Shown here piece after piece: positions 24,006-64,000 of a stretch of DNA of 64,000 bases. The notes beneath the pieces were generated by a model. The model saw only the letters and a program-made list of their open reading frames with translations. It did not search any database and had not been told where the DNA came from. Source of the stretch: Arenicola marina. Its lineage: Eukaryota; Annelida; Polychaeta; Arenicolidae. Numbering within the stretch: position 1 is the first letter of the stretch; the number at the start of each line of letters is the position of its first letter. The position numbers were made by a program, and so were the translations under genes. The DNA lies in contig OZ025248.1 in the NCBI GenBank assembly GCA_964019135.1, positions 49,903,670 through 49,967,669 of the forward strand, given 5' to 3'.

Positions 24006-24008
24006 CAC

Positions 24009-24778: not shown

Positions 24779-25019
24779 TCAACCCGCACCACCCTCACTT
24801 AGCCCCCCCCCCCCCCCCCCCCACCACATCTATGCCCCTTCCTGCCTCTTTCTTGGGTGCCGGGTGTGGCCCTGCGGACCCTATGGCGCTCATTGGCATG
24901 AGGGCACCCAATGGCTCCCACTCAAACATGTCATCATTACGTATCATCTCCTCCAGCCATATCTCCCATGTACCATATCCTCTGTACGTCCGGAGATGGC
25001 GTCAGCCGACCGGAACTAA

Positions 25020-25632
25020 TGATGTCTAAGCAGCGCTACGCGTCGACAGCGTTGGCAGGTGCCCGGTAGCGTTGCACAATTAGTATATATTTACTCGGGT
25101 TATCGTAGATAGCAAGTACTCTATCACAACGTTTGTACTCTCGCGTTAACGGATATAGCTTGTAACCTAGGATGATATTTACTAGTTTTTTACTTTATAG
25201 TTTGTACTCGAGAGTATGTAGGCAAGCAACTGTTTGAGCTTACCGCTTACATTTGTTCAAGGTTCTTAACGAGGCAGCTGTTACGCCATCCGCCTTGCAT
25301 ATAAGAAACGTCATCGCGCGCGGTTATGCTCGCAATGGAAAGTGTTAATTCTGGTTTTAAATGTAGTAACTTGAATGGGTTGATGTCGGTTTTTGATTTG
25401 GTAACCTAAGTGTTAACTTTGGTTTTACTCTTGGTAACTTAAGGGTTAACTTTGGTTTTAATTGCGGTAACCTGCTGATGCGAATGTTGAATTAGTGGGG
25501 TGCTCACGTAGCAGCGGATCATGGTTACAAGATGACACCTGCGTGTGTCAGAGGCTGCTGCGTGACACCACTCCTGAGTTTATAAGGCAGCACTCGGGGG
25601 GATTATGTTTACCTCCTAGTGCATGTCTAATA
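25020..25632. repeat. 3' region of the recombinase element with short direct repeats
   Basis: Imperfect units of about 35 bp with the core GGTAACTTAAGGGTTAACTT repeat three to four times between 25340 and 25475. The rest shows no gene. The far right end, read inward on the minus strand, is TTGTCTCGTTAGCGGCGAC. It partly matches the left-end TTGTTGAGTAGCGGCG (8748-8763) in inverted orientation. Confidence 0.55.
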
Positions 25633-27660
25633 ATAAAATTATAAACCCAACTTCTCGAGTTGTTGTCGCCGCTAACGAGACAAATAAAAACATATGGCGA
25701 TAATGGATCACCCTGTCGACACCCTCTACCAATAGTAAATTCTTCTGAGAGATTACCGTTATTCACAACACTGCTCTTAGGTTCTTTATAAACAATATTA
25801 AACCATTTTATAAATGACGGGCCGAATCCATATGCTTTAAATACACTATTTATATATTTCCAGCTTACCGTGTCAAACGCTTTCACGAAGTCTATTAAAA
25901 GTAGCATACCGGCCTTCTTTCTATCCTGCACATAATGCATTATGTCATACACCAGCCTTGTGCTTTCACCGATGAATCTTCCCTTTAGAAAACCTTTTTG
26001 ATCGTTACTAATAATGTTTGGTAATACTTGTTTCATCCTATTAGCTAATACCCCAGTTAATATTTTCAAATCTGCGTTTAATAAGGATATAGGACGCCAG
26101 TTTTTTATGTATTCCCTAGGCTTATCGCCCTTCGGTAAACATGTAATTATCCCCAACCTGTGGGTTACTGATAGCGACTCAGATGTATATGCCGTTTGAA
26201 GGCTGCGATACAAATAGGTTCCAATGTCATTCCAGAAAAAATTATAAAAATCTATGGGAAAGCCATCAATTCCCGGTGACTTATTATTTTTTATCTCCTT
26301 AATGACCAATTTAATTTCATGTAACGTAATGTTACCTTCACATAGATCTCTCTGTTTTTCATTTAAGCGCTTGATGTTTGCTGGTTGTAAAAAGGTCTGA
26401 GTGTATCTTTCTGCCCTAGTATGATTACAATTTGCATACAGGTTACAATAATAGTTCCTAATTTTGCGGCTGGTTCCCCGATTTCTACGTCATCGATCAC
26501 AAGTTTACTAATCAATTTGCATACATAGTTTCTCTTTTCTAGACTACAAAAATAATGACTAGATATCTCACCTTCTTCATACCACCTAGCTTTTGATCTT
26601 AGGATACTACCTTTGACTTTAGATATACGTATCGTTTCTAATTCATCGTTTAATGAGTCTAAAAAAACGGCATTTCTGATAGTTGACCCTGACTCAATTT
26701 GTGAGATTTGTATTTCAATGCTCCTTTCCCTCGCCATTTGACATTTTTTCTTGTAACTACTATAGCTAATTGTATGACCCCGAATCTCTAGTTTTATCAT
26801 TTCAAACAGTTTCTGGTCGTCTAAGGTATTGCCATAAAAAAACAGCTAAACGTTAATGCATTGTTTGACTATCTTTACATATTCCGGGTCAGTTAATAAG
26901 TCAGTGTTAAATGTCCAATAACCTTTGCCCCTTGCCGCGAGGAAAAAATCTAATTTTACCAAAACCAATAAGTGATCCGTTCTATATCCCGGTCTAATAT
27001 CACAAGCCCAAAGTATCCCAAATATCAAAGCGTTTATGTCATTTGAGGTCAAAAAAAAGTCTAATCTTGCCCTTTGGGTTTTACGTTGTTGGTTAGTCCA
27101 AGTAAATCTCCTCGTCTTTGGGTGACAAATCCGCCAATAGTCTGATAGTTCTAAACTTTCTAACAACTCATATACAGCCGTTCTTGCCTTAATATTATTT
27201 TCCCGTTTATATCCAATTGTATCATTTTTTTGGGATAACACCAGGTTCCAGTCTCCACATATTATTATGGCTGAATTTTCAAAAGTCCTAATTTTGTCAT
27301 TGAATTCCTTATAAAAAAACAGGGTTATCTTTGTTTGGCCCATATATATTACATAGGGTAAGCCTGTAACGACATATAACTATTTCAACGATCAACATAT
27401 TACCCTCTTCGTCTTTAACCACCCTATGTACAACGTATTCAAAGTTGTTTCTTAACATTATGACGACTCCGCGGGCTCGGGAGGATGGCGAGTATGCTAA
27501 GAACCTAGCGTCATACTCATCCTCCAACTGTGTAAGTGTGCAACGATCAAAATGCACGTCCTGTAGGCAACATATTGATAACTGTTGATCTTCGAGCCAG
27601 CTCATTACATCCTCGCGTTTCAGCGGGGAACCAAGTCCCCGAACATTTAAACTGCAAATT
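25633..27660 (-). pseudogene. LINE ORF2, 5' half (endonuclease and reverse transcriptase up to the split)
   Basis: Read on the minus strand from about 27660, the N-terminus is SLNVRGLGSPLKR, then CLQDVHFD, IYGPNKDN, GDWN, RLDFFL and TDH. These are the landmarks of an APE-type endonuclease. The CLQDVH box carries Asp where the usual CLQETH catalytic Glu sits. The RT part starts near 26330 with NNKSPGIDGFP, LLNADLKIL and LLIDFVKAFDTVSW (catalytic Asp), then GCRQGDPLSPYVFI, where homology stops at the inserted element. Frameshifts or stops near 27330, 26830 and 26400 inactivate it. With 6915-8722 it makes one L1/Tx1-like ORF2. Confidence 0.85.
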
Positions 27661-36165: not shown

Positions 36166-38397
36166 ATGTGGAAGACTGTCCTCTTCACCTGTATGCTGGC
36201 CTACCTGCCCTACATCGCCTGGGTCTGGGCCAGATCCAGGGCCCCGACCCCTAAAGCCACCCGGATCAGAGACACCCCGGAGGCCGAGTACGACTACGTG
36301 GTGGTAGGGGCGGGGTCAGCGGGGTGCGTGCTGGCGGCCAGGCTATCGCAGGACCCTGGGCGGACCGTCCTGCTCCTGGAGGCCGGCGGGGACGACGCCG
36401 CCTTCCCGGAGCTGCACGTCCCCATCAACGCCTACGGCACGTGGGGCGACCCCCGTTGGGACTGGGCCTACAAGACCGAGCCCCAGCAACAGGCCTGCCT
36501 CTCGATGAAGGTGAGGCGGTGACGCGGCGTAGAGGTGGGTGGGGGGGGGGGGGTCATTACGTTATTTGATAATTAACTAATGTAATTAGGGTTTGCGTCA
36601 AATTAAAGAATATCATGACGTGATGATTGCAGCTTCATTTACATTACACTAAATAGATAACTGATTAAACTAATTAATTAATTAGGATTCCAACGTAATT
36701 AGGCAATAATCCAGGTACTTTTTCATCGCAGACAAGTTGGGCATTGTTTACTGGAATATGTTTATCAGTTATATTAGAACTAAAGCCCTTCCAAGAATAT
36801 ATATTATATTTATCATATTGAGTAACATATAGTAGGATAAATGTTATGTGAACTGATCACCCAAATTCAGATGCCAAGCATAATAGGAGAGGAAGAGTTA
36901 GACATGACATTAGTTTTCTGTGTTTAGGACAAGCGCTGCGGCTGGCCACGTGGTAAAGTGCTGGGCGGAAGTGGGTCCCTCAACACCATGATATACATCC
37001 GGGGCAGTCGCCATGACTACGACCGCTGGGAGGCGATGGGGGCCAAGGGCTGGTCCTATGAAGACGTCCTACCTTACTTCAAGAGGGCAGAAACCAATCG
37101 CAGCCCCGCCATGCTCGCGTCGGGTTACCATGGCGACAGCGGTCCCGTGGTCGTGTCCGACGTCAACGCGACTATACTGGGGGAGCGTTTCGTGAGAGCC
37201 GGAGAGGAGTTGGGTTACCAGGGCGGCGACGTCAACGGCGAAACCCAGGAGGGCAAGTTCATGCATATGCAGTCCACGATTAAAGATGGCGCCCGTTGGT
37301 CTGTGGCTTCGTCCTACCTCAGGCCAGCCCAGCACCGTCCCAATCTTCATATCACCACACGGGCGCACGTTTCCAAGGTTGCGTTCGCCGGCAAGCGCGC
37401 GGTGGGGGTGATCTTCCGCCTGGACGAGGAGATTGTGACGGTGCGAGCCCGGAAGGAGGTGATTCTATCGGCGGGGGCCGTCGGGTCGGCGCAGCTGTTG
37501 TTGCTATCCGGCGTGGGCCCGCGACAGCATCTGGAGGAACTGGGCATCCCGGTCGTGGCCGACCTCCCCGTCGGGGAGGCCGTTGAAGACCACATGATGG
37601 TGTTCGCCCCCGAGTACACGCTCTCCCAGCCGGTCAGCCTGACCCAGGCCGGGCTGGACTCGACGTGGACCGACCTCCAGTACAAGCTGTTCCGCAGCGG
37701 GCTTCACGCCACAGCAGGGTTAGACGGCAACGCCTTCCTGCGGGTGCCTCACCAGCCGGACCGCGACCCGGCCGCTCACCTCCAGGTCATGATGGTGGCC
37801 TACCTGGAGGGGCTGAGTAACGCCACCCTCGACACGTGGACCCGCAACCTCAACGGCCGGCCGCGCGAGTTCCACCACATGTCTGGCGGGGTGGAGGGGC
37901 TCGCCGGTCTGACCTTCCTTCCGGTACTCCTCCACCCGAGGTCGACCGGCACCATCCGCCTTCGGACAAAGTTCGCCAAGGACTCGCCTCTCATCGACCC
38001 CAAGTACCTGTCCCACGGTGATGATGTCGCGACGCTGGTACACGGCATCCGGGTGGCGCAGAAACTGGCCGCCACCGAGGCCTTCCGCAGCCTGGGAATC
38101 CGGCTTCTGGAGCGCGTCCACCCGGCCTGCACCGAGCCGGACTTCGACAGCGACGAGTACTGGGAGTGTTTCGTCCGCCAGATGGCCACCTCCATCTTCC
38201 ACCCGACGGGCAGCTGTAGAATGGGGGCCGAGGGGGACCCGGAGGCCGTGGTACACCCCAGCCTCACCGTCCAGGGCCTTCAGGATCTCCGCGTGGTCGA
38301 CGCTTCCGTCATGCCCTCAGCCATCTCCGGAAACACGGAGGCGGCCACCATTATGATCGCCGAGAAGGCAGCAGATCTTATAACATGGGCCAAATAG
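36166..38397 (+). CDS. GMC oxidoreductase (choline/glucose dehydrogenase-like), GMC-1
   Basis: Two exons, 36166-36510 and 36928-38397. The donor is AAG|GTGAGG, the acceptor TGTTTAG|GAC, phase 0, with a 417-bp intron. The joined protein has 604 residues, usual for the family. Residues 5-22 form a hydrophobic membrane anchor or signal. The FAD-binding Rossmann motif is [16 protein letters not shown] (45-60). GMC signature 1 is [12 protein letters not shown] (124-135), and signature 2 is [13 protein letters not shown]. The C-terminal HPTGSCRMG contains the catalytic His (540). The second catalytic position lies in SGNTEAAT, where Glu586 replaces the usual Asn. The enzyme should oxidise an alcohol with FAD; the substrate is unknown. 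Its closest neighbour is convergent paralogue GMC-2. The ATG at 36166 is chosen because it gives the same N-terminal layout as GMC-2. Confidence 0.94.
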
Positions 38398-42842: not shown

Positions 42843-44660
42843 TTACGCGCCTTGTAGAATCATGTCGGCACCCTTTTCGGCTATCATGATGGTCGGGGCG
42901 TTGGTGTTTCCGGACATGAGAGTGGGCATGACGGACGCGTCCACCACCCGGATACCGTCCAGGCCACGGATCCGGAGCTTGGGATCCACAACAGACTGTG
43001 GATCGTCGGGAGATCCCATCTTACAGGTGGAGGTCGGGTGAAATATGGTGGTGGCCATGTTACGCACATAACACTCCCAGTATTCGTCGCTGTCGAATGG
43101 CGCGTCCTTGCACTCCGGGTGAACACGCTGGACCATCTTGACACCGATCTTCTGGAATGACTCCGTGGCCGCCAGCCTCTGTGCCATCCGGATCCCCTCC
43201 ACCATGGTTTGAACGTCCTCCGCCTGGGATAAGTAGTTGGGTTCTATTTCCGGATAGTCGAAGGGGTCGGTGGAGATCAGCCGGATGTGTCCTCTGGATT
43301 TGGGGTGGGTGAGGACCGTAAGCAGGATCATGCCTCCTCGGCCTTCCATCCCGCCGTGGAGAGCTTCAAAGACGTCGTCGCGCACGTTCATGAAGTACTT
43401 GAACGTGTCGAAGCGGCGCTGGTTCTCGCCGATCAGGAGACCGAACATCTGGTGCTGGAGATGCGGGAATTTATCGGCCTTGGGTTGATCCGGAAGCTCG
43501 TAGAAGGAGGTGCCGTCCATGGCGCACGGGGTCGCCTTAATTCCGGTGCCGAACATGCGGAATTTCAGGTCCTCCGCCCACGACTCCATGAGGCTCTCCG
43601 TGACCCCGCCCAGTCCTGAGAACGTGAATTCGGGGGCGAACAGCATCATGTGATCCTGAAGATTATTCCCGACCGGCAGATCCGCGACGACGGGGATGTG
43701 ATGCTTCTCGAGCTGCTCCTGTGGGCCCACTCCGGAGAGCAGCAGAATGTGGGGGGATCCCACGGACCCGGCGGAGAGGATCACTTCCGTCCTGGCGCGT
43801 GCCACCTGCTTCCTGGCGTTCCGGACGAACTCGACCCCGACGGCCCGCTTGCCCTGGAACAGGACACGCGTCACCTGGGCGTCCGTTGTGATGTGGAGGT
43901 TCTTGCGCCGCTGGGCGGGCCGCAGGAAGGCGGTGGCCGTGCTCCACCGCGCCCCGTTCGTGCCGATGTTCGCCTGGGGCTGCATGAAGACGCCCTCCTG
44001 CTTGGCCCCGTTGGCGTCGTCCACCCGGTACCCCAGTTGCTCGCCGGCCTCCAAGTAGCGATCTACCAAGGCCGTGGAGTTGGCGTCGATGATGGTCAGC
44101 GGGCCGCCTTCCCCGTGGTGCCCGTTGGCCACCATTCGAGGGTTCTGGTTGTCCTCGGACTTCTTGAAGTACGGCAGCACATCGTCGTAGCTCCATCCAT
44201 CCGCTCCCATCTCCGCCCAGCGGTCGTAGTCATGGCGGCTGCCGCGCACGTAGAGCATGCAATTCACCGAGCTGCAGCCGCCCAAAAGTTTGCCGCGCGG
44301 CCACAGACACCGGTTATTGTTCATCGAGAGACACGCCTGCTTCTGCGGGGTCGTGCTGTACACCCAATCCACATCCGGTCTCGCCCACGTGTTCATGGCT
44401 TCCACAGGGACGTGGACGTCCCAGAACTTGGCGTCGTCGGGCCCGGCTTCGAGGATGAGCACCTTGTGGTCGGGGTTGGCGGAGAGCCTGTTGGCCAGAA
44501 CGCACCCGGCCGACCCGGCCCCGACCACGATGTAGTCGTACTCGGCGTCTGTGTTCTCGCGGATCAGGGTCGGCGCCGGGACCTGCGAGTAGCGCCCCAG
44601 CCAGCGGTGAAGCCAATAGGCCGCGATGGCGACCATCACAACGGTTTTCAGCGACGGCAT
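42843..44660 (-). CDS. GMC oxidoreductase (choline/glucose dehydrogenase-like), GMC-2, intronless
   Basis: A single uninterrupted frame of 605 residues, with the ATG in good context (AAAATGCC). An N-terminal hydrophobic segment (residues 5-17) is followed by FAD motif [17 protein letters not shown], signature 1 [12 protein letters not shown] and signature 2 [13 protein letters not shown]. The C-terminal HPTSTCKMG has the catalytic His (541), and SGNTNAPT has the conventional second catalytic Asn (587). All expected residues for an FAD-dependent alcohol dehydrogenase or oxidase are present. It aligns end to end with GMC-1 but lacks that gene's intron after the ACLSMK segment (here ACLSMN). The genes are convergent, 3' ends 4.4 kb apart. 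The substrate cannot be read from sequence. Confidence 0.96.
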
Positions 44661-45325
44661 TTTCTCACGAGATTATATTATTATTAATAAAACGTTGTGA
44701 ATATCAATAGCATTAATATATATATATATGCGTAGAGATTACCATTGAGGCAGTTATGCAGACATAGTCGGGCCCTACAGCACGTCAACCAGTCGTGTTG
44801 GTGGTCTGTCTGTCGTATGGACTGTGGACTAGTACAGGCCTGAGTACCTTATAATGCCCGCAGTCTGTCGTTACAGCACAATGAACGTCAAATCAGAACG
44901 ACGATACCCTTAGCGAGACATAGAGAGCAAGATAAGGGGGCAACAAAAATGGGGAAAAAATATGTGGTTTGTTCAGGGACATATGTTAATGTTCTCACTT
45001 GCTCAGTGTAATACATTGTTTATTTCATTTGTGCTTGGGTGGATATGCAAGTGCGGATCCAGGGAGGGGCAGTGGGTCTCTGGTGAAGCGAGGATGCTCT
45101 TTTTCAATGGTAACGGCACGCCATCTAACATGTACCCTGGGCCCCCATGTTATCGTGTGAATATTGCAATGATCCAAAGCCCCCCTCCGCTGGGTCGCAA
45201 AATTGACAAACTGAAAGTGCACCCCCCGCCCTCCTCCCCAAATTCTTTATACGAGCCTGGTCGTGATGCCAATGGGCGGAGGGGCGGGGTGGGGGGTCTG
45301 GGCGCAAGTGCGCTTCAGGGGGGGG
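44661..45325. other. Upstream region of GMC-2, no further gene
   Basis: A (TA)n run at 44719-44730 lies about 60 bp upstream of the GMC-2 start and could serve as its TATA region. The rest shows no recognisable gene; it ends in a G-run (about 45318) at the border of the minisatellite. Confidence 0.45.
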
Positions 45326-45329
45326 GGCG

Positions 45330-48000
45330 ACTTAATATCTAGGGGGATCGACTTATTATCTAGGGGGACCGACTTAATAGCCAGGGGGGTCGACTTAATA
45401 TCTAGGGGGGTCGACTGAATATCTAGGGGGGTCGACTTAATATCTATGGGGGTCGACTGAATATCTAGGGGGATCGACTTAATATCTAGGAGGGTCGACT
45501 TGGTATTTACGGGCCCCGACTTAATATCTAGGGGGACCGACTTCATATCTAGGGGGGCCGACTTATTATCTAGGGGAACCGACTTATTATCTAGGGGGAC
45601 CGACTTATTATCTAGGGGGAGCGACTTATTAACTAGGGAACCGACTTATTAACTAGGGGAACCGACTTATTATCTAGGGGGAGCGACCTATTATCTAGGG
45701 AGACCGACTTATTATCTAGGGGGAGCGACTTATTATCTAGGGGGAGCGACTTATTAACTAGGGAACCGACTTATTAACTAGGGGAACCGACTTATTATCT
45801 AGGGGAACCGACTTATTATCTAGGAACATTGAGTTATTTTCTAGGGAGACAGACTTATTATCTAGGGGGAGCGACTTATTATCTAGGGGGAGCGACAATA
45901 CCTAGGGAGATCGAGTTATTATCTAGGGGGACCGACTTATTGTCTAGGGGGGCCGACTTATTATCTAGGGAAAGCGACCTATTATCTAGGGGGAGCGACT
46001 TATTATGTAGGGGGAGCGACTTATTAACTAGGGGAACCGACTTATTATCTAGCGAGACGGACTTATTATCTAGCGAGACCGACTTATTATCTAGAGGGAG
46101 CTACTTATTATCTAGGGGAAGCGACTTATTATCTAGGGGAACCGACTTATTATCTAGGGACATTGAGTTATTATCTAGGGACATTGAGTTATTATCTAGG
46201 GGGAGCGACTTATTATCTAGGGGGAGCGACTTATTATCTAGGGGGAGCGACTTATTATCTAGGGGGAGCGACTTATTATCTAGGGGGAGCGACTTATTAT
46301 CTAGGGGAAGCGACTTATTATCTAGGGGAACCGACTTATTATCTAGGGACATTGAGTTATTATCTAGGGGGAGCGACTTATTATCTAGGGGGAGCGACTT
46401 ATTATCTAGGGGGAGCGACTTATTATCTAGGGGGAGCGACTTATTAACTAGGGGAACCGACTTATTATCTAGGGGAACCGACTTATTATCTAGGGACATT
46501 GAATTATCATATAGGGAGACCGACTTATTATCTAGGGGGAGCGACTTATTATCTAGGGGGAGCGACTTATTAACTAGGGAACCGACTTATTAACTAGGGG
46601 AACCGACTTATTATCTAGGGAAAGCGGCCTATTATCTAGGGGGAGCGACTTATTATCTAGGGGGAGCGGCCTATTATCTAGGGGAACCGACTTATTATCT
46701 AGCGAGACCGACTTATTATCTAGAGGGAGCTACTTATTATCTAGGGGAAGCGACTTATTATCTAGGGGAACCGACTTATTATCTAGGGACATTGAGATAT
46801 TATCTAGGGACATTGACTTATTATCTAGGGGGAGCGACTTATTATCTAGGGGGAGCGACTTATTATCTAGGGGGAGCGACTTATTAACTAGGGGAACCGA
46901 CTTATTATCTAGGGGAACCGACTTATTATCTAGGGACATTGAGTTATTATATAGGGAGACCGACTTATTATCTAGGGGGAGCGACTTATTATCTAGGGGG
47001 AGCGACCTATTATCTAGGGGGAGGGACTTATTAACTAGGGGAACCGACTTATTAACTAGGGGAACCGACTTATTATCTAGCGAGACGGACTTATTATCTA
47101 GCGAGACCGACTTATTATCTAGGGGGAGCTACCTATTATCTGGGGGGAGCGACTTATTATCTAGGGGGGTCGACTTATTATCTAGGGGAACCGACTTATT
47201 ATCTAGGGGGAGCGACTTATTATCTAGGGGGAGCGACTTATTATCTAGGGAGATCGAGTTGTTATCTAGGGGGACCGACTTATTGTCTAGAGGGGCCGAC
47301 TTATTATCTAGGGACATTGAGTTATTATCTAGGGGGGGCGACTTATTATTTAGGGGGAGCGACTTATTATCTAGGGGGAGCGACTTATTATCTAGGGGGA
47401 CCGACTTATTATCTAGAGGGATCGACTTATAATAGGGATATCAAGTTATTATCTAGGGGGAGCGACTTATTATCTAGGGGGAGCTACTTATTATCTGGGG
47501 GAACCGACTTATTATCTAGGGGAACCGACTCATAGTCTAGGGGGACCGACTTATTATCTAGGGGGACCGACTTATTATCTAGGGGGACCGACGTATTATC
47601 TAGGGGAACCGACTTATTATCTAGAGGGATCGACTTATAATAGGGATATCAAGTTATTATCTAGGGGGAGCGACTTATTATCTAGGGGGAGCTACTTATT
47701 ATCTGGGGGAACCGACTTATTATCTAGGGGGACCGACTCATAGTCTAGGGGGACCGACTTATTATCTAGGGGGAGCGACTTATTATCTAGGGGGAGAGAC
47801 TTATTATCTAGGGGGACCGACTTATTATCTAGAGGGATCGACTTATAATAGGGATATCAAGTTATTATCTAGGGGGAGCGACTTATTATCTAGGGGGAGC
47901 TACTTATTATCTGGGGGAACCGACTTATTATCTAGGGGGACCGACTCATAGTCTAGGGGGACAGACTTATTATCTAGGAGGACCGACGTATTATCTAGGG
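45330..48000 (+). repeat. 21-bp minisatellite (about 127 copies)
   Basis: The unit is CTAGGGGGAGCGACTTATTAT (21 bp), with variants GGGAACCGAC, GGACATTGAG, GGAGACCGAC and GGAGCTACTT. Early units (45330-45540) have TTAATATCT instead of TTATTATCT. Higher-order repeats occur: the odd unit TTATAATAGGGATATCAAG recurs at 208-bp spacing (about 47431, 47639, 47847). Since 21 is a multiple of 3, open frames run on both strands (heptads LLSRGSD and SLPLDNK). No gene is claimed. Confidence 0.97.
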
Positions 48001-49206: not shown

Positions 49207-50909
49207 TCAGGTTGTGGGACTGCGACAAGTCAGTCTGGCGCGCTGTTTGAGCAGGAAGTCGCGCAGGTCGGCCTTGAAGTTACTGCTGGCGAGGGTGTAG
49301 ATTACCGGGTTGACGGCGTTGTTAAGGTAAAACGTGTGGTGCAGCAAGACGAGACAACGTCTTCGGAATTGCCGAGGTTGATCCATAGATCCGAGTAGAG
49401 GATGACGGAGATTTTGAGGATCCAGAAGGGGAGCGAAGAGAGGAAGAAGACAGCGGTCACCACGGACAGCATCTTGGCCGCCTTAATGCCTGGCACCGGG
49501 ATCTTCGTCTTCTGGAGAGCGTTGCATCGGATGTCCAGCGGAGGAGGAGGCGCTGTCCGGATACGGGTCTCGGCAGGCGCTCTCGCTCGCCCCTCGACCA
49601 GGTCACGAGATTGTCCAGGCAGCGTGGTATCCCCGTCCCCTACGGTCTGGTGGCCTTGGTAGACTGCGCTCTGTGTACCACCCGCCTTTTGCCTCGTGAT
49701 GTGAGTGGAGGCCATGCCATTACTTCGGGCGCAAAATGTTGATGCGCGCGCCTCTAGCATTCTCTGGGCGATAATAGGGTCCGCCGGCTTCGGGAATGTT
49801 GCCCCGATGAAGGACGCGCCCTGCACGAGGTAACAGGGCGCCACGCGGCGCTGGTGGAGGTAGGCTTTGCGCGCCACCTGGCAGTAGAGAGCCACCAGTG
49901 TAATGAGCGTCGTCACCAGCCCAACCACCGTAAACCCGCCGAAGACCGCGTGGTACAGCGAACCGTCGTACCGATCGCTGCAGTGACACATAGCGGTGAT
50001 GACGTCAGTCACACAGGGAACGCTGCCGACGGTGACTTTGGTCGATTTTTGGCCGTAGAAGACGAGAAGCGGCGTGCTCACGGCCACACCCCAGATAAAG
50101 GACATGACAATGGGAAACTTAGCACTGCGTTTCAAGGTGGTGAAGGCGATGGGCTTACATATGGCGTAGTAGCGGTCCACGGCCACAGCCACCAGCAACG
50201 TCGTCTGTACGCCTCGGCTGGCGTGCACCAGGAACTCAAATATCTTCAATTGAATGGACAAATATAATAGTTAGAAAGATGGCGTGCACTTGGAACTCGA
50301 ATATCTACAATTAAACGATAAATTATAATATAATGTATATAAGGGCGGGCGTGCACTAGGCATTCGGATATCTACAATTCAAATGGACCATTATACACCA
50401 GCAACTCGAATATTTTACATGAAATGGACAAATATAAAAGTTAAAGGATGGCGTGCACCAGCAACTCGAATATCTAACTTGAATGGGCAATTATAATAGT
50501 TACAAGGACATAGAGCACAGATCGAATAGAACTAGGGACAAATAAAATACAGCACACACAGTGAGATGTCCAGGGTGTCTGCCCCCCGCACCTCCCACCT
50601 GGCCCTCTTTTAACTCCCCTTAATGGCTCCCTGTTGATGTGTCTTACTCCCTTACTCCCAGGAGATGGGCAACAAGATCCCGTTGCTTAGCGCCCCGACC
50701 ACCATCAGAGAGGTCATGAAGACAACGACTGGCGTCATGGCAATGCGGTGCTTCCGGTTCATGGCGTCAAGGAGCTCCGTCTTAGGGACTTCGTTGCGGC
50801 GAATGTACGCGTCGCTGTTGTTGTCCGCAGAGATACAGTCCACAGTGGAAACATTCCCAGGCCTGGTGGGACCGATTGGCGGACCGCGCCCGAAGGATGC
50901 CAGCCCCAT
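49207..50909 (-). pseudogene. Class A (rhodopsin-like) GPCR, apparently broken
   Basis: Exon A (about 50909-50656) starts MGLASFG, has N-glycosylation sites (NVS, NNS) and TM1 ending GALSNGILLP; its likely donor is GGA|GTAAGG. Exon B (about 50243-49207) runs from TM3 (VQTTLLVAVAVDRYYAICKP, containing DRY) through TM4, an extracellular loop with Cys, TM5, a long third intracellular loop and TM6 (MLSVVTAVFFLSSLPF). TM7, FYLNNAVNPVIYTLASS, is NPxxY-positive but lies in another frame, with the shift near 49350; the stop is at 49207-49209. No TM2 segment is visible between the exons and their phases do not match. Missing TM2 plus a frameshift suggest a pseudogene or an assembly error. The ligand is unknown. 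Confidence 0.75.
50225..50505. repeat. Tandem copies of a GPCR exon edge (about 5 units of 50-65 bp)
   Basis: Units share GCGTGCACCAGCAACTCGAA followed by TATCTACAATTGAATGGACA and an AT-rich tail. The first unit (50221-50280) is the authentic 5' edge of GPCR exon B with its acceptor. The others start near 50282, 50348, 50396 and 50451 within the intron. Confidence 0.85.
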
Positions 50910-55045: not shown

Positions 55046-55267
55046 CTACAGATCCGAGCTGTTGGTAGTGACCCCCCCGAGGTGTGTGACGGAGGTGTCC
55101 AGCTCCTCCCCCACCGGGTGTTCCACGACGTACTTCAGAATCAGCTCCCGGGTCTCCCCCGCGCCGATCTCCAGATCCCACTCGATGTTATTCATCCTGT
55201 TGACACGGATCGGTTTAGTCAAGTCGTACTTCTCCGGGTGCTTGATTACTGGCTCCTGTACCGTCAC
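55046..55267 (-). CDS. DUF4139 gene, last constant exon
   Basis: The acceptor is CACACAG|GTGACG. It encodes VTVQEPVIKHPEKYDLTK through VEHPVGEELD to the TAG stop, the conserved C-terminal end of DUF4139 proteins. 222 nt including the stop. Confidence 0.92.
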   Translation of the reverse strand: MTVQEPVIKHPEKYDLTKPIRVNRMNNIEWDLEIGAGETRELILKYVVEHPVGEELDTSVTHLGGVTTNSSDL

Positions 55268-58200
55268 CTGTGTGTACCGTACCGGTAGTGGGTGGAGAGG
55301 AATTGCGATTCAATCATTTCTAGATAGTTAAAATTGCAGACTCTTATTTCTTCACGTATACCGTCAATCTATAATCATGTGATTGTGTTTCACAAGAAAC
55401 ACGTTAACTTGATATATGTAATCATGTATTTAACCGAGATTGTTCGGATAGTTAACCGATGTACACGCAAATTTGACTCTATTGTCCTATTCTTCTTGAC
55501 GCTTTTAGAATGTGTGAGGTGAGCACTATTGGCATGATATGGGTCAAGGAGTTACGTGGGGAGGGGGTGGGGGAATTGCAGCTACAAAGACTAGTGCTTT
55601 GAAAATTAACCCATTTCACTTGAAGATTACGAGCTTGCTTCTGCCTGAAGTTGCTCGTTGGTTTTCCCTGCCGTTTAGAGAGAGCCCCAGTGAATTAAAA
55701 CGTATCAACCTGTGGAGCCTTACCTTAATCTTCTCCTCCGTGCTGAGCGGCAGCTGGTCCACAACGAGGATCTTCACCAGGTCCTTGTGTGTGTTCTTTA
55801 TCTCGATCAGCTGTTTGTACGTGGTGGACATCCACTTGGAGATGAGGCCGGACTGCTCGCGAAACTTGTTCACGGGCTTGTAGGTGACCTTGACCGCCGG
55901 GTCGACCCCCAGCGAGCAGGTGAAGTCCTCCTGGGGACTCACGGCCTTCAGTTCAGCCTGTAAGACATGACGAGATACGGGTCCTTACAGATTAGAGTGA
56001 TAGGACAGCCTTTTGTTTGACTTGCTGAATTTGTCAGATTCAAGGAGCTGGATTCATGGAGGAGCTGGGTACATGGAAGTGATGGATTCATGGGGGTGAT
56101 GGATTCATGGAAGTGATGGATGGTAGAGATGGTATATATGCAGGGGCGCCAATGGAAGCTGCTAACCTTGGCGATGAAGTTGTTGTCGAGGAAGATGTTG
56201 GTGGGCCCGGCAAGCAGGGCGTAGGGCGAGGTGTTCTTGACCTTGGCCTTGAGGAAGGCGTTGCAGATCTTCTTGGGGACCGTCTCGTACTCGAAGGTCG
56301 GTTTGAGGTCGATGATGGCCACGGAGACCTTGTGGCTCACGTTGTCGGCGGGCACCGTGGACCGCCGGGCGATCTCGTACATGGTCGTGGCGATGCTCTC
56401 CTTCACCTGCAGAGGATCCTCTTCCACGTTAGCCACCCCACAGCCCTCCTTAAATATGTACGTCACCTATTTCACGTGGTTCTCAACAACCGCATGCACA
56501 TATATATAAGATCTTAACCAAATACCGTAATCAAAATAACTCTTGTTTCAGCATAGCTCACGTATATACTCACGCCCAGTATATAATACAGTAATAATAA
56601 ATGTCGTGGGCATCTAATATGGCAGACGAACACCTAAAACAGTCGACCCAGCGATTAATTCAGGGTTAACTCCCAGTCACTCTCAGTCCTCAGTTTGCCA
56701 TCGCCTGAAGCATTAAGCCAAGTTGCCAAGGGTCAACCTAACCGTCTCGCAACTGTTATCTTTCCGTCAGCAGCCCATTCCATTAGGTCATTTCGGGCGT
56801 TTTATCAGATAAATAAGTCATTTTCTGTAAAGATTGTTCATGTTCCAACCAATGCATGGATTTAATCTGGCCTTTCAAACAAAGAGCGACTAAATGGCAA
56901 ATTAACCGGGTTCTAATCAATGAAACGCCAAGTGAGACCAAGGCGCAATAGCGGAAAAGGTCGGAGAACAATGGAGACTTTACAACAACGACCCGTTGTT
57001 AATCAACCAAAGAATTTCCACACTAAAGGCCGACTAGGATTTTACAACATAAGGCGGCTTGCGTGACAGCCCCAAATTATCGTGACATCAACAAGATTAA
57101 TAACACAAATTATCGTGACATCAACAAGATTAATAACACAAACATGCACAACAACTTCAAAATGCCTAATGAGACAGTCAAGAAATTAGTCCCAATACAG
57201 AAGTGAGGTAACACAAACATGAAAACCATCGTATCACACGTTGCATGCGAGGCAGTCGTTAAGCCCTTCCAAGGCTACCATGCACCAACAAAGGCAAGGA
57301 CGAACAAAAGGGGAAAATAACTAAATGTTCCATTCAGCAAGCTCAGAATGTAACCGAGTAACACATAAGAGACAATCTCATAAATCAAGACAAGAATGGA
57401 ACACAAGATGATACATCAAGTACAGGTTTAGCAAAGTATTCCATCAAACTAGACGCACAGATAGTTTCCAGGAGGGAAAAGCTGAAAAACAGAAGTTGGC
57501 AAGTTAGAAGTATGATGGTAAGAGGATCTATAGAACCGAACGTCCTCCTTTCCCACTCCAGTGTGTGTGTGTTAGTAACCTAGAGTCTGGCTCCCAAAAC
57601 GCCATAACGACACAGCGTAAGCTATTAGCCCTTAAACTTACGATGTAACTAACCATAACCTGTCCATGATCTGTGTTCCCAACAAAGTTTCCTATTTTAC
57701 ACAGACGGAGATTAGGCAGCCAGGTCCAGTCCAGTATGTACAACAGGTAGTCCCTTCCCTTATCATTTCCTGGACCCATTAACCATAGGAGCCCCCCCTC
57801 CCACCCACACACACACACCTCGCGAAGGATTAGTAAGCCTATGTGGTGAGGGTCTAGCCTAAGCGGTGAGGCGCTAACCTCGGCGGTGGCTATGTCCATC
57901 TCGGGCATGGGGGGCGCCACGACATCCATGGCCGGGGCCATACTCATCATCATCTCAGCGGGCGCGGCGCAATACGCCATCATGGCCGCGGGCTCCTGAC
58001 GATTACTCTTCGCCCTGAAGACGCTGCTACGAGATCTCTGTGGCGGCCTGTATTCATGGCAACAGAAAACATACAGAGAACAGGCTAGAAAGAAAAGCTC
58101 GACCGAGGCAAGCCGTGCATCCATCCGCTAAGGAATCAAGAAGAAATTTCAGTTGATGGTTTATGGTTTCATAAAAAAGTACATGTGGATCTGGGGAGTT

Positions 58201-60440
58201 GCCGTGCAGTGCAATCTGAAAGGAAATCGACGTCTACACACTGAGGTGTTGATTGGTCTGTTGGTTGGAGATTCACTGAAGGGACACTGATCAGTAAAGT
58301 GATTTTGTAAGGTGCGGGAAGGACCAAGGGTAGGGAGGAGTCCTGTCCGCCGGGTGTAGCCCATCACCAAGGACCACGAGGCCTCCCGGGATCTACACAC
58401 CCCGGATATCGAGGTAACTATACCAGGTTTCCAAACCTTAACAAAAACAGCTGCACAGAAAAAAAAAAAAGAGAGACAAGAGACAAAAAACCCGGTGCCG
58501 CATTGGTTGGCCATGATTATTCTGTATCTCATTCGGTCCTCATCGCTGTAATTGATCACCGCATAACAATTAGACGTGATTATGCCGGCTATATGGCTGC
58601 CCCACACCCCCTCCCCCTCCCATTTCCATCAGTTCTGTTCGACCAGTCTGACCTCGGTCGCGGAATGCTCCATGTTAAGAGGGGGTGAGGCGGCCATCCC
58701 CGGCATGTCCTTATCGTCGTTGTCGCCCTCCATGTCGTAGGTCCCCAACACGGGGGCGACGTCCATCTTGTACTTGGACAAGCGGCGGAACGACCGGCGC
58801 CCGAGCTTCTTAAACTTTCTGCGCGCGCATGATATAAGCAGACATAGATTATGCAACAACGAACAAAACCGCAAGACACAGAAACACGATACACATATGC
58901 CAGACAAAAGTGACATAGCAATGGCGATCTACTTTGGAAGGCTGCAGTGTGAACGTTCTGTGTTGCCACAGGAAAGAGTGTTAGAATTGGCGGCAGATAA
59001 GCCATTCCGCCATGCAAATATATGCGTATGAAAGTCCAACCGGAGATTAAGGCATGAATCGCCAAGGCAACGCCGCAGGAGAGAAAGGCAATCCCGACCT
59101 TTGCTAATCCCCCCCCCCCCCTCGATTGCATGATCATTGTTGGCAGCCAAATCTGGAGAGTGCTTTACATAACATTCATCTCATTTCCTTCGCACACTTT
59201 AGCCTTAAAAAAACAATTTATCAAAATCTTACTACTTAATAAATACCAAGTAACGAACACACCACACCATATGACCAAAATCAGTTAACTCAAATGTAAA
59301 CACGTTAGAGCAATAATTTTGTCACAACACTGAGACAAACAAACGCCGAGCAGCAAACAGCATAAGTGGCATGCCCGAAGATACCTATGTGTATACATTT
59401 ATCTGATAATGAAACAACAAAAGGCATAAATAGATGGTATAAATGGTAAACTATACACTTGAACACAATGACACGCGCCCCTGAATAATAAAAGGTTACT
59501 AACAGTTAGGCGTGCAAGGACCTTCACGAAGACAAATTAGAATATTATCATATCGAACTGAATGCTAAAAAAGAAAGACAAATGTTACAATGCACAGCCG
59601 ACAAACCTCGTGGGCCGCTATAACTTCCACTTCCGTCTGGGAGGACGCGACTTCTGGGAGCGCTCTTAAGTTATTTAGGGATTCCGACGGGAGAGCGGGG
59701 GCGTCATTTGTGACGTCACAGACAGGGACCTCCGCGTTCCCCGCCACGCCACTGTCACTCTCGTCGTCGCGGACAGAGAAAGATTGTGAGCGAGGAGGCA
59801 TTTTGCGCGCGGCCATGGGAGCGCGGCGTCCCAGTCCACTGGGACGCCGCTTGGAGGAGCTGTATGTACCGGGCGGCCATTGCCCGCTGGTGAGTCAAGA
59901 CAAAGACCCAGATAAGAGGTCATCCAAGAAGGAAGTCTGTGATGAAAAGGACTGATATTTCTGACCATAAGAGGATCATCGAGGGGCGAAAGTGACACGG
60001 CGATAGAACAAGTTGAAACAGACATTTCAACATGCGACTAACAAAGGAAGAAAAATGCATATCCAAGTCATGCAGAGCAACAAATCCAAACTCAAAATAT
60101 CAAAATGCCATTCTCAATCTAGCGTCTGTCAGGGCGGCATCGAGGACCAAAACTTAAATTGAAAGTATACCCTAAAAAGTCCCACATCACAAGTCAAATA
60201 AAACATAACATCTATCACCGAAAAAAATTGGGTACAGTGCACCTTTAAGAGACTGAGATCTAAAAATGTTAGTTAACCTCCGTGGGGACGTCAGTGAACT
60301 CTGCAGACTCTTCCTTGAACCAGCTGCCCAGGCGCACGGCCCCCAGAGCCTCGTTCTGGGAGACTGCCCGGCGATCAGAGGGAGGGTGGGAGCGGACAAA
60401 CGTACCGGAAGTTGTGCGCCGACGCTGACGCCGACTGCCT
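55046..60440 (-). CDS. DUF4139 (F37C4.5-like) protein gene, 3' part, with variant exon cluster
   Basis: The constant 3' exons are 56406-56167, 55957-55724 and 55267-55046 (80 + 78 + 73 codons, all phase 0, TAG stop). They encode a DUF4139 domain: MYEIARRSTVPADNVSHK, NTSPYALLAGPTNIFLDN, then CSLGVDPAVKVTYKPVNK, ILVVDQLPLSTEEKI, NIEWDLEIGAGET and YVVEHPVGEE. Upstream lie four variant exons that all end in Glu before a GT donor and all begin with one codon-completing base. The 5' exons, expected to encode the DUF4140 N-terminal domain and coiled coil, are outside the window beyond the 44-bp satellite. The biochemical role of the family is unknown. The phase structure implies mutually exclusive splicing (see the exon entries and findings). 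Confidence 0.87.
55724..55957 (-). CDS. DUF4139 gene, second constant exon
   Basis: The acceptor is TTACAG|GCTGAA and the donor AAG|GTAAGG; 234 nt, phase 0 at both ends. It encodes AELKAVSPQEDFTCSLGVD to STEEKIK. Confidence 0.92.
56045..56125. repeat. Short intronic repeat (about 18 bp, 4 copies)
   Basis: Imperfect copies of GGATTCATGGAAGTGAT in the intron between the first two constant exons. Confidence 0.8.
56167..56406 (-). CDS. DUF4139 gene, first constant exon after the variants
   Basis: The acceptor is CCTCTGCAG|GTGAAG and the donor AAG|GTTAGC; 240 nt, phase 0. It encodes VKESIATTMYEIARRS to IFLDNNFIAK. The frame stays open further upstream to 56466, but the acceptor at 56407 has the better pyrimidine tract. 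It also gives the family-like join ...AE/VKES. Confidence 0.85.
57073..57140. repeat. 33-bp direct duplication in intron
   Basis: CAAATTATCGTGACATCAAC plus AAGATTAATAACA is repeated twice in tandem. Confidence 0.93.
57879..58047 (-). CDS. Variant exon V1 of the DUF4139 gene (169 nt)
   Basis: The acceptor is GAATACAG|GCCGCC and the donor GAG|GTTAGC. After one codon-completing base it encodes PPQRSRSSVFRAKSNRQ, then a Met/Ala/Pro-rich linker, and ends DIATAE. The Met-rich linker is the form typical of the family, so V1 may be the ancestral choice. Read in phase 0 it stops at its seventh codon (TAG). Confidence 0.78.
58653..58818 (-). CDS. Variant exon V2 of the DUF4139 gene (166 nt)
   Basis: The acceptor is GCGCGCAG|AAAGTT and the donor GAG|GTCAGA. 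After one base it encodes KFKKLGRRSFRRLSKYKM, an acidic middle (EGDNDDKD) and the end MEHSATE. A basic head and acidic or neutral tail resemble the other variants. Read in phase 0 it stops at the third codon (AAA GTT TAA). Confidence 0.75.
59607..59859 (-). CDS. Variant exon V3 of the DUF4139 gene (253 nt)
   Basis: The acceptor is GTACATACAG|CTCC and the donor GAG|GTTTGT. It encodes SSKRRPSGLGRRAPMAARK, SFSVRDDESDSGVAGN and the end VEVIAAHE. It is the longest of the four, with 84 codons after one base. Read in phase 0 it meets a TGA at about codon 35. An internal ATG at 59816 also opens the frame but is not needed if the exon is spliced. Confidence 0.7.
60278..60440 (-). CDS. Variant exon V4 of the DUF4139 gene (163 nt)
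   Basis: The acceptor is GTGCCTTCAG|AGGC and the donor GAG|GTTAAC. It encodes GSRRQRRRTTSGTFVRS, then LGSWFKEESAEFTDVPTE. It is the most 5' exon visible in the window and shares the basic start, Glu end and phases of V1-V3. Confidence 0.7.
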
Positions 60441-60950
60441 CTGAAGGCACTTCGGCCGCCAATGTCAGGGTCACACACGACCACGTGGTTAGTCCTAGCA
60501 TAGCCACAACAGTCATAACTTAACATGCGTGTTAGTAAAAAAAAAGTTTGGTCGAAAAACACTTTGATTAAAAAACGGTCAGTTCCTTTGGATATCGTGG
60601 GTTGCTGTTTTTCTATTGACATACATGTATGTGTCTATGTCATTTGCACAAAACTGAATAAATGTCTTGATAGTTATTTGCGCAAACAGAAACTGGTCAC
60701 AACAAAGAGTAACATCGACAAATCAAACATGGAACTCTTTTACATTCGTTGACAAAAACTAGATACTAAGCGATAATCCAGCCGAGTTCATAACGTGAAA
60801 CAAATATATATGGTACATATGAAATGCATCTAAAAATGATCTTGTCTACATGCGAACGAACAGGACAACAAAACAACCTATATATAAGGACATGGCGGGT
60901 CAGACAGACTGTGGAACTCTGACAAACATCGGCATTCGTCAGTAACTAAA
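60441..60950. other. Probable intron upstream of V4, no gene
   Basis: AT-rich with no recognised exon of the DUF4139 gene in any frame. Confidence 0.5.
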
Positions 60951-60954
60951 GCCA

Positions 60955-63900
60955 CATTTCAAATATCAGCGACGCCTCCGTAATAACCAAATCAATAAGC
61001 TTATGTATCATAGACGCACGTCCGTATTAACCAAAACAGTCAGCTTATGTATCATAGACGCACGTCCGTAATAACCAAACCAGTCAGCTTAAGCATCATA
61101 GACGCACGTCCGTAATAAACAAAACAGCCAGCTTATGTATCAGACGCACGTCCATAATAACCAAACCAGTCAGCTTATGCATGATAGACGCACGTCCGTA
61201 ATAACCAAAACAGCCACCTTATGTATCATAGACGCACGTTCGTAATAACCAAAACAGTCAGCTTATGTATCATAGACGCAAGTCCGTAATAACCAAAACA
61301 GCCAGCGTATGTATCATAGACGCACGTCCGTAATAACCAAAACAGTCAGCTTAAGCATCATAGACGCACGTCCGTAATAACCAAAACAGTCAGCTTATGC
61401 ATCATAGACGCACGTCCATAATAACCAAAACAGCCAGCGTATGTATCATAGACGCACGTCCGTAATAACCCAAACAGTCAGCTTAAGCATCATAGACGCA
61501 CGTCCATAATAACCAAAACAGCCAGCGTATGTATCATAGACGCACGTCCGTAATAACCCAAACAGTCAGCTTAAGCATCATAGACGCACGTCCATAATAA
61601 CGAAAACAGTCAGCTTAAGCATCATAGACGCACGTCCGTAATAACCAAAACAGACAGCTTATGCATCATAGACGCACGTCCGTAATAACCAAAACAGTCA
61701 GCTTAAGCATCATAGACGCACGTCCGTAATAACCAAAACAGACAGCTTATGCATCATAGACGCACGTCCGTAATAACCAAAACAGTCAGCTTAAGCATCA
61801 TAGACGCACGTCCGTAATAACCAAAACAGCCAGCTTAAGCATCATAGACGCACGTCCGTAATAACCAAAACAGACAGCTTATGCATCATAGACGCACGTC
61901 CGTAATAACCAAAACAGTCAGCTTATGTATCATAGACGCACGTCCGTAATAACCAAAACAGTCAGCTTAAGCATCATAGACGCACGTCCATAATAACCAA
62001 AACAGCCAGCGTATGTATCATAGACGCACGTCCGTAATAACCCAAACAGTCAGCTTAAGCATCATAGACGCACGTCCATAATAACGAAAACAGCCAGCGT
62101 ATGTATCATAGACGCACGTCCGTAATAACCAAAACAGTCAGCTTAAGCATCATAGACGCACGTCCGTAATAACCAAAACAGTCAGCTTATGCATCATAGA
62201 CGCACGTCCGTAATAACCAAAACAGTCAGCTTAAGCATCATAGACGCACGTCCATAATAACCAAAACAGCCAGCGTATGTATCATAGACGCACGTCCGTA
62301 ATAACCAAAACAGTCAGCTTATGTATCATAGACGGACGTCCGTAATAACCAAAACAGTCAGCTTAAGCATCATAGACGCACGTCCATAATAACCAAAACA
62401 GCCAGCGTATGTATCATAGACGCACGTCCGTAATAACCAAAACAGTCAGCTTATGTATCATAGACGCACGTCCGTAATAACCAAAACAGCCAGCGTATGT
62501 ATCATAGACGCACGTCCGTAATAACCCAAACAGTCAGCTTAAGCATCATAGACGCACGTCCATAATAACCAAAACAGCCAGCGTATCTATCATAGACGCA
62601 CGTCCGTAATAACCAAAACAGTCAGCTTAAGCATCATAGACGCACGTCCGTAATAACCAAAACAGTCAGCTTATGCATCATAGACGCACGTCCGTAATAA
62701 CCAAAACAGTCAGCTTAAGCATCATAGACGCACGTCCATAATAACCAAAACAGCCAGCGTATGTATCATAGACGCACGTCCGTAATAACCAAAACAGTCA
62801 GCTTATGTATCATAGACGGACGTCCGTAATAACCAAAACAGTCAGCTTAAGCATCATAGACGCACGTCCATAATAACCAAAACAGCCAGCGTATGTATCA
62901 TAGACGCACGTCCGTAATAACCAAAACAGTCAGCTTATGTATCATAGACGCACGTCCGTAATAACCAAAACAGCCAGCTTATGCATCATAGACGCACGTC
63001 CGTAATAACCAAAACAGTCAGCTTAAGCATCATAGACGCACGTCCATAATAACCAAAACAGCCAGCGTATGTATCATAGACGCACGTCCGTAATAACCAA
63101 AACAGTCAGCTTATGTATCATAGACGGACGTCCGTAATAACCAAAACAGTCAGCTTATGCATCATAGACGCACGTCCGTAATAACCAAAACAGACAGCTT
63201 ATGCATGATAGACGCACGTCCGTAATAACCAAAACAGCCAGCTTATGCATGATAGACGCACGTCCGTAATAACCAAAACAGACAGCTTATGTATCATAGA
63301 CGCACGTCCGTAATAACCAAAACAGTCAGCTTATGTATCATAGACGCACGTCCGTAATAACCAAAACAGACAGCTTATGTATCATAGACGCACGTCCGTA
63401 ATAACCAAAACAGCCAGCTTATGCATGATAGACGCACGTCCGTAATAACCAAAACAGCCAGCTCATGTATCATAGACGCACGTCCGTAATAACCAAAACA
63501 GTCAGCTTAAGCGTCATAGACGCACGTCCGTATTAACCAAAACAGACAGCTTATGCATGATAGACGCACGTCCGTAATAACCAAAACAGACAGCTTATGT
63601 ATCATAGACGGACGTCCGTAATAACCAAAACAGACAGCTTATGTATCATAGACGCACGTCCGTAATAACCAAAACAGTCAGCTTATGCATCATAGACGCA
63701 CGTCCGTAATAACCAAAACAGTCAGCTTAAGCATCATAGACGCACGTCCATAATAACGAAAACAGCCAGCGTATGTATCATAGACGCACGTCCGTAATAA
63801 CCAAAACAGTCAGCTTAAGCATCATAGACGCACGTCCATAATAACCAAAACAGCCAGCGTATGTATCATAGACGCACGTCCGTAATAACCCAAACAGTCA

Positions 63901-64000
63901 GCTTAAGCATCATAGACGCACGTCCATAATAACCAAAACAGCCAGCGTATGTATCATAGACGCACGTCCGTAATAACCCAAACAGTCAGCTTAAGCATCA
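60955..64000. repeat. 44-bp satellite (about 69 copies, continues beyond the window)
   Basis: The unit contains CATCATAGACGCACGTCCGT followed by AATAACCAAAACAGTCAGCTTAAG (44 bp). Two main types alternate, CTTAAGCATC...CCATAATAACC and GCGTATGTATC...CCGTAATAACC, giving stretches with an 88-bp period. The rare GACGGACGTC variant recurs at 62331, 62815, 63123 and 63607, spacings of 484, 308 and 484 bp (11, 7 and 11 units). The array lies upstream of V4, probably within an intron of the DUF4139 gene. Confidence 0.97.

What the first reader, a model, noticed from the sequence alone, without database searches (positions are those of the whole stretch)
57879..60440. Phase-locked cluster of four mutually exclusive exons in a DUF4139 gene
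Seen: four tandem exons (V4 163, V3 253, V2 166, V1 169 nt; all 1 mod 3) share one acceptor phase (one codon-completing base) and one donor phase (phase 0, ending GAG). They encode different peptides with a basic head and a Glu end. Joining two of them shifts the frame: the second stops at codon 3 (V2), codon 7 (V1) or about codon 35 (V3). If the upstream constant exon ends with two leftover bases, as the acceptors imply, skipping all four reads xxG TGA at the first constant exon, an immediate stop. Only single inclusion keeps the frame. Inference: the gene switches the linker before its DUF4139 domain by mutually exclusive splicing enforced by nonsense-mediated decay. I know of no such system in this family.
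Basis: partly seen in the sequence, partly recalled or inferred. Interest (0 to 1): 0.92.

Follow-up and report, generated by a model that had tools for sequence, protein, structure and literature searches.

The report
Frame-locked choice of linker exons
An animal gene of unknown function appears to carry four interchangeable exons of which only one at a time keeps the reading frame, and related genes in several animal groups show a similar choice at the same place, so the switch looks old.

Summary
Four open blocks (V4, V3, V2, V1) on the minus strand share one acceptor phase and one donor phase, upstream of three constant exons of an F37C4.5-like (MuiA/DUF4139) gene. If the upstream exon, which lies outside the window, ends with two leftover bases, the 4 single inclusions of 16 combinations read through and the other 12 stop early, 473-960 nt before the last junction. 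Codon use supports V1 and V2; it does not separate V3 or V4 from random DNA of like G+C.

The best support is comparative: in 17 of 25 multi-member groups of relatives, wholly different linkers sit between matching flanks at the same place, in annelid, nemertean, mollusc, hemichordate and cnidarian. Two unnamed pairs lie on contigs too short for introns. In Patella and Clytia every alternative starts with Ser or Arg, as a shared AG plus one base would give.

Corrections: the linker lies inside DUF4139, not before it; databases already list such isoforms. NMD, regulation and use of all four exons in this animal are inferred; no RNA evidence was available. Verdict: a new variant of mutually exclusive splicing.

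The parts
60278..60440 (-). Alternative exon V4 (163 nt); in-frame longer form 60278-60494
   Evidence: Phase, stops and borders; best local match to relatives' linkers reached by 0 of 100 shuffles; codon use not above random
59607..59859 (-). Alternative exon V3 (253 nt); in-frame longer form 59607-59886 with the better acceptor
   Evidence: match to linkers reached by 2 of 100 shuffles; codon use not above random
58653..58818 (-). Alternative exon V2 (166 nt)
   Evidence: codon use 0.42; GC3 0.89 against 0.56 and 0.40 in the other frames; match to linkers reached by 5 of 100 shuffles
57879..58047 (-). Alternative exon V1 (169 nt), Met/Ala/Pro-rich; in-frame longer form 57819-58047
   Evidence: codon use 0.15; match to linkers reached by 6 of 100 shuffles
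56167..56406 (-). Constant exon C1 (240 nt, phase 0 in and out)
   Evidence: codon use 0.79; with C2 and C3 matches PF13598 profile positions 78-204
55724..55957 (-). Constant exon C2 (234 nt)
55046..55267 (-). Last coding stretch C3, ends at the stop codon
60977..64000 (.). 44-bp minisatellite, about 69 copies, that fills the window up to its end; the upstream constant exon must lie beyond it
   Evidence: no further exon of this gene was recognised in the window

Best explanation
This is the 3' half of an animal F37C4.5-like gene (MuiA family: DUF4140, coiled coil, DUF4139). A tandem set of four alternative exons supplies a disordered insert inside the DUF4139 domain. Each exon enters in phase 2 and leaves in phase 0, so one and only one can be used: skipping all, or joining two, three or four, gives an early stop upstream of the last two junctions. 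Shown: coordinates, open frames, shared phases, stops, and matching alternative linkers in relatives. Inferred: that the upstream exon ends in phase 2 here, that all four blocks are spliced in this animal, that mis-spliced RNA is removed by nonsense-mediated decay so that the frame acts as a filter behind an imperfect splice choice, and that the choice swaps binding motifs on a flexible loop between two folded parts.
For: 4 of 16 combinations are full length, 12 stop early. Seven such donors on the minus strand, 0 on the plus strand, mean 0.37 in shuffles. Alternative linkers between matching flanks in 17 of 25 multi-member groups; two unnamed pairs on short contigs and the Arion pair have flanks identical but for 1 residue. 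First residues share AG in Patella (5) and Clytia (4) and AT in Owenia (2). 44 of 49 linkers of those groups end in Glu, Gln or Lys before the constant part, as AG-ending donors in phase 0 would give. Linker below pLDDT 50 between confident strands in the P0001 model.
Against: No RNA for this species; upstream exon not seen (genome search did not complete). V3 and V4 lack codon-use support and splice sites are weak. V peptides resemble relatives' linkers only weakly: 0, 2, 5 and 6 of 100 shuffles do as well for V4, V3, V2, V1, and 3 of 100 for the long V4. 12 of 17 sets are silent on the upstream phase. 4 of 6 Biomphalaria models (two species) join two or more blocks, Lottia P0103 and Lymnaea P0113 are long models too, and Lineus has extra pieces. 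Branchiostoma shows one block with varying 5' ends. Most named relatives are computed gene models.
Confidence: 0.7

Rival explanations
1. Only V1 and V2 are exons here; V3 and/or V4 are chance open frames in G+C-rich stretches. The gene would still choose between two or three linkers.
For: Codon use does not separate V3 or V4 from random DNA of like G+C; their GC3 does not single out the frame used; their splice sites are among the weakest.
Against: Both are open in the needed frame with the needed phases and lie in G+C islands like V1 and V2; their peptides match relatives' linkers better than 100 of 100 (V4) and 98 of 100 (V3) shuffles.
Confidence: 0.15
2. The exons are loosely controlled, and the frame mainly serves to lower the amount of protein: wrong combinations are made often as a shut-off by unproductive splicing, rather than to choose linkers.
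For: 12 of 16 combinations give early stops far from the last junction. Non-triplet splicing coupled to NMD is common in worm and human (PMC13247117, abstract and passages).
Against: Relatives keep several full-length alternatives with quite different sequences, which a shut-off alone does not need.
Confidence: 0.1
3. Exclusion is set by competing RNA structures (one docking site, one selector for each exon), with the frame only a by-product.
For: The best site in the V1-C1 intron pairs with all four upstream introns at -27.9 kcal/mol or better, against a mean of -25.8 and a best of -27.0 in 15 shuffles.
Against: The site is a TG- and G-rich simple stretch, and the real scan had twice as many positions as the shuffled ones. 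The intron upstream of V4 is only partly in the window.
Confidence: 0.05

Closest known systems
FGFR2 IIIb/IIIc exons with NMD clean-up (Jones et al. 2001, seen only as cited in PMC6071210, passage)
   Same: Mutually exclusive exons; transcripts with more than one meet early stops and can be degraded.
   Different: Two exons there; four here, with unlike sequences and lengths. [quoted passage not shown] here the quadruple still stops, because the second block is read out of frame.
Dscam-type exon arrays with docking and selector sites (PMC6071210, passages)
   Same: Tandem array from which one exon is taken.
   Different: No convincing docking site found; the frame lock is the feature seen here.
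Mutually exclusive exons of C. elegans and human (PMC13247117, passages)
   Same: Single choice among exons.
   Different: In that worm study mutually exclusive exons were 100% triplet; some NMD-sensitive non-triplet ones were reported in human. The whole set here is non-triplet.
F37C4.5-like isoforms in NCBI records (Patella, Gigantopelta, Clytia, Owenia and others)
   Same: Same gene family, same place, alternative linkers.
   Different: Annotated without comment; the phase rule has not been described in the papers searched. Linker sequences differ between species.

Membership tests
MuiA / F37C4.5 family (TIGR02231; DUF4140 + DUF4139) | DUF4139 domain | tested here: met
   Spliced C1-C3: PF13598, E 6.2e-28, profile 78-204; C2 frame alone E 1.2e-15; the C1 frame and the C3 frame alone gave no family
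MuiA / F37C4.5 family (TIGR02231; DUF4140 + DUF4139) | N-terminal DUF4140 and coiled coil | not testable with these tools
   Upstream of the window; present in relatives P0001, P0029, P0066, which also match TIGR02231
Mutually exclusive exon cluster | Tandem exons with the same entry and exit phases | tested here: met
Mutually exclusive exon cluster | Exactly one exon in each mature RNA | not testable with these tools
   No RNA of this species. In relatives, one block in each model in 15 of the 17 groups by my reading; not in Lineus and Biomphalaria
Mutually exclusive exon cluster | Exons alike in sequence and length, from tandem duplication (usual, not required) | tested here: not met
   Lengths 163-280 nt; 5 of 6 peptide pairs no better than shuffles, V3-V2 reached by 3 of 300
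NMD-policed mutually exclusive exons | Wrong combinations give an early stop more than about 55 nt before the last junction | tested here: met
   12 of 12 wrong combinations, 473-960 nt, given an upstream exon in phase 2
NMD-policed mutually exclusive exons | Wrong products rise when NMD is blocked | not testable with these tools
   Needs RNA from NMD-blocked animals
Docking/selector exon arrays (Dscam type) | Docking site complementary to a selector at each exon | tested here: inconclusive
   Slight excess in simple sequence

The most novel reading that the evidence does not exclude
A frame-locked array of non-triplet linker exons arose before cnidarians and bilaterians parted and has been kept in this gene family, while the exons themselves turned over so freely that the alternatives hardly resemble each other. 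The choice moves short binding motifs in and out of a flexible loop. One of them closely copies the switch I stretch of Ras/Rap (EYDPTIEDSY; 8 to 10 of 10 residues identical); it lies in 1 of 5 Patella alternatives and, in full length, in 1 of 4 Clytia alternatives, so that splicing would turn a Ras/Rap look-alike on and off. The window's own four exons lack that motif.
Probability: 0.28. Interest if true: 0.82.

Novelty: new variant of a known kind. Interest (0 to 1): 0.62.

Why it matters
A paper on exclusive exons states that NMD cannot police clusters of more than three (PMC6071210, passage), and a worm survey found only triplet ones (PMC13247117, passage). This gene would be a natural counter-case with four, similar in kind in relatives from five animal phyla, in a family that has bacterial members and whose worm member is called uncharacterized (PMC6470173, passage). 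It also points to the disordered loop as the regulated part of a protein of unknown function, which can be tested.

Tried and rejected
Own-genome search for the upstream exons: the genome search did not answer in 9 tries. Ordinary in-frame cassette exons: rejected on frame. Crowding or mixed spliceosomes: introns between V exons are 391-788 nt, and the GT donors do not look U12-type (the U12 consensus is recalled). Recent tandem duplication of one exon: not supported. RBFOX-type TGCATG: 5 on the minus strand of 56407-61000 against 1.3 in single-base shuffles, but 36 in the window against 36.8 in dinucleotide shuffles; left open as weak. Docking site: weak, in simple sequence, unequal control. 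Fold of the P0001 model in the PDB: 0 matches at E 0.001 or better, best 1.2e-3 with TM 0.12; C1-C3 against PDB sequences: 0 at E up to 1. Strict splice-score scan: 1 candidate only, the long V1, because the matrix rejects most sites of this gene. Ras-like motif in the window: none in the V exons; one partial, unrelated match at 6267 on the plus strand. KRI-1/KRIT1 link: F37C4.5 was pulled down with KRI-1 in C. elegans, but its RNAi did not change radiation-induced apoptosis (PMC6470173, passages), and CCM1/KRIT1 binds Rap1 (PMC6663315, passages); none of the three nematode proteins looked at (P0055, P0126, P0140) has the motif and the C. elegans protein was not on file, so this stays a lead. 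F37C4.5 in the SIMR-1 paper (PMC7255803, passages) and the NMAD-1 paper (PMC6638966, passage) gave no splicing information.

Full report
What was claimed and what is there. The four exons were recomputed and are present at the stated places; the constant acceptor is 56406, not 56407. All four are 1 mod 3, take one base to finish a codon and end GAG before a GT. With the unseen upstream exon written as ending in two leftover bases, the 4 single inclusions of 16 combinations read to the normal stop. The skip, 6 pairs, 4 triples and the quadruple stop early, 473-960 nt before the last junction. Longer in-frame forms exist for V3 (acceptor 59886), V4 (acceptor 60494) and V1 (donor 57819). The lock held in the 2 single forms and 5 pairs tried with the first two and in the 8 combinations that contain the long V1.

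Is it more than chance? Open frames of this kind close at 7 donors on the minus strand of 56407-61000 (four of them V1-V4), at 0 on the plus strand and at a mean of 0.37 in 500 block shuffles, of which 1 reached four. The V blocks have 61-66% G+C in flanks of 35-52%. Codon use separates V2 clearly and V1 modestly from random DNA of like G+C and does not separate V3 or V4; one antisense frame of V1, with a stop, scores higher than its sense frame. Splice sites are weak on a generic matrix, but so are the acceptors of C1 and C3. The peptides run from a basic head to an acidic end (net charge of thirds: +7/0/-3, +8/-6/-4, +10/-6/-2, +5/-1/-4 for V4, V3, V2, V1).

What gene it is. Spliced C1-C3 match PF13598; the C1 frame and the C3 frame alone did not. 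Relatives P0001, P0029 and P0066 are TIGR02231 (MuiA) proteins with DUF4140 and DUF4139. In the AlphaFold2 model of the annelid relative P0001 (26 sequences, mean pLDDT 72.1, pTM 0.50) residues 332-427 are below pLDDT 50, between confident strands 320-328 and 430-439, while the Pfam domain runs from 279 to 630. So the V exons code for a disordered insert within DUF4139. No solved structure matched at E 0.001 or better.

Relatives. Three protein searches (the first two scored only the 7996 candidates sharing most words, and one search listed 120 of 186) put 226 proteins on file. Of these 204 had both anchors; they formed 149 groups with flanks at least 97% identical, 25 with more than one member. 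In 17 of the 25, linkers that differ wholly sit between the same flanks: Owenia, Lineus, Tubulanus, Glandiceps, Ptychodera, Patella, Liolophura, Arion, three Haliotis groups (one mixes two species), Clytia (with one unnamed near relative), Gigantopelta, Biomphalaria (two species), Aplysia and two unnamed pairs. The other 8 are three Branchiostoma groups, one Haliotis group with identical linkers, one Schistosoma group and three unnamed groups. Most named members are computed isoform models. The pairs P0040/P0046 and P0073/P0168 lie on contigs of 1.9-2.4 kb that have room for the coding sequence but hardly for introns; their flanks are identical but for 1 residue (283/283 and 206/206; 318/318 and 219/220), so each pair is likely two transcripts of one gene. 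The Arion pair has identical flanks as well (288/288, 216/216).

Phase in relatives. If the upstream exon ends with two leftover bases, the first residues of the alternatives must come from codons that share two bases. Patella (S, R, R, S, S) and Clytia (S, S, R, R) fit AG; Owenia (M, I) fits AT; Ptychodera and Glandiceps (N, K) fit AA. The other 12 of 17 sets are silent: their first differing residues share no two bases, so the junction would lie in the last shared residue (residues entered by hand). In those 17 groups 44 of 49 linkers end in Glu, Gln or Lys before the constant part; the 5 others are two of Lineus, one of Tubulanus, P0061 and P0168. In the window all four end in Glu (GAG). 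No genomic DNA of relatives was available, so exon lengths there are inferred.

Likeness of the V peptides to relatives' linkers is weak: the best local score is reached by 0 (V4), 2 (V3), 5 (V2) and 6 (V1) of 100 shuffles, and by 3 of 100 for the long V4 (113 linkers). By eye the V4 tail EFTDVPTE resembles the tails of one alternative in Owenia (QYAEIPTE), Tubulanus (EYQDMPLE) and Lineus (EYKDLPLE), which suggests that alternatives can be old; this was not tested by itself.

Results that do not fit. Four of six Biomphalaria models join two or more blocks, and Lottia P0103 and Lymnaea P0113 have long linkers. In P0107 and P0117 the blocks are bridged by residues that look like intron reading or by a shortened second block, as a gene finder would need to keep the frame; this is my reading and was not tested. 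Lineus has extra pieces. Branchiostoma has one block with varying 5' ends.

Mechanism. Crowding and mixed spliceosomes do not fit. A docking site was not convincingly found. The frame filter applies by arithmetic. [quoted passage not shown] Here four exons of 1 mod 3 do return to the end frame of a single one, but the second block is read out of frame and meets a stop. So the statement is not general, if this cluster is real. That NMD acts here, and what selects the exon, is inferred.

A second finding. A stretch like EYDPTIEDSY occurs in 11 of 226 proteins on file with 8 to 10 of 10 residues equal to the Ras stretch: P0059 and P0168 (10), P0130, P0172 and P0193 (9), P0029, P0065, P0066, P0076, P0082 and P0103 (8); partial forms lie in P0068 and P0069. 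They include three sponges (Dysidea P0076, Ephydatia P0082, Halichondria P0130), Patella, Lottia, Clytia and a rotifer (Didymodactylos P0172). For P0172 and P0193 I did not check that it lies in the linker. The P0059 piece aligns with K-Ras residues 30-42 with EYDPTIEDSY identical; the E-value of so short a match is 0.033, and the 60 of 330 matches shown are Ras and Rap chains. In Patella it is in 1 of 5 alternatives, in Clytia in full length in 1 of 4 and partial in another. The window's exons lack it. One paper search for YDPTIEDSY with mimic listed 3 papers, none of which concerns this family by title and start of abstract.

Literature. DUF4139 (2 papers), F37C4.5 (6 papers, 5 listed), mutually exclusive exons with mucoidy inhibitor (0) and mucoidy inhibitor with alternative splicing (0): none that I saw describes this switch (listings, and passages of three papers). 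One search was mostly off topic. Most subscription journals are not in that library.

Verdict. The anatomy is confirmed, single choice of a linker is well supported by relatives, NMD as the enforcer is plausible and untested, and V3 and V4 need RNA. The species of the window was not identified.

Noticed in passing
Relatives P0029, P0059, P0065, P0066, P0076, P0082, P0103, P0130, P0168, P0172, P0193: A stretch like EYDPTIEDSY, 8 to 10 of 10 residues equal to the switch I stretch of Ras, in animal DUF4139 proteins; in Patella and Clytia only in some of the alternative linkers.
   Followed up: partly
Owenia P0002, Tubulanus P0004, Lineus P0006 and P0007: One alternative linker looks alike in annelid and nemerteans (KKRPQS ... 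DEAL ... tail EYxDxPLE or QYAEIPTE), so single alternatives may be old (by eye).
   Followed up: partly
60977-64000: 44-bp minisatellite of about 69 copies within this gene's upstream intron, running to the window's end.
   Followed up: no
9737-22350: 62-bp satellite array of about 205 copies.
   Followed up: no
45321-48000: 21-bp repeat array of about 128 copies with long open frames of a seven-residue repeat such as LLSRGSD.
   Followed up: no
36928-38397 (+) and 42843-44672 (-): Two long open frames that look like GMC oxidoreductases, apparently without introns; named by eye, not by a search.
   Followed up: no
49302-50270 (-): Rhodopsin-type receptor frame, PF00001, E 8.8e-18.
   Followed up: no
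24006-25019 (+) and 25548-26489 (-): Frames that look by eye like a tyrosine recombinase-type element and a LINE-type reverse transcriptase.
   Followed up: no
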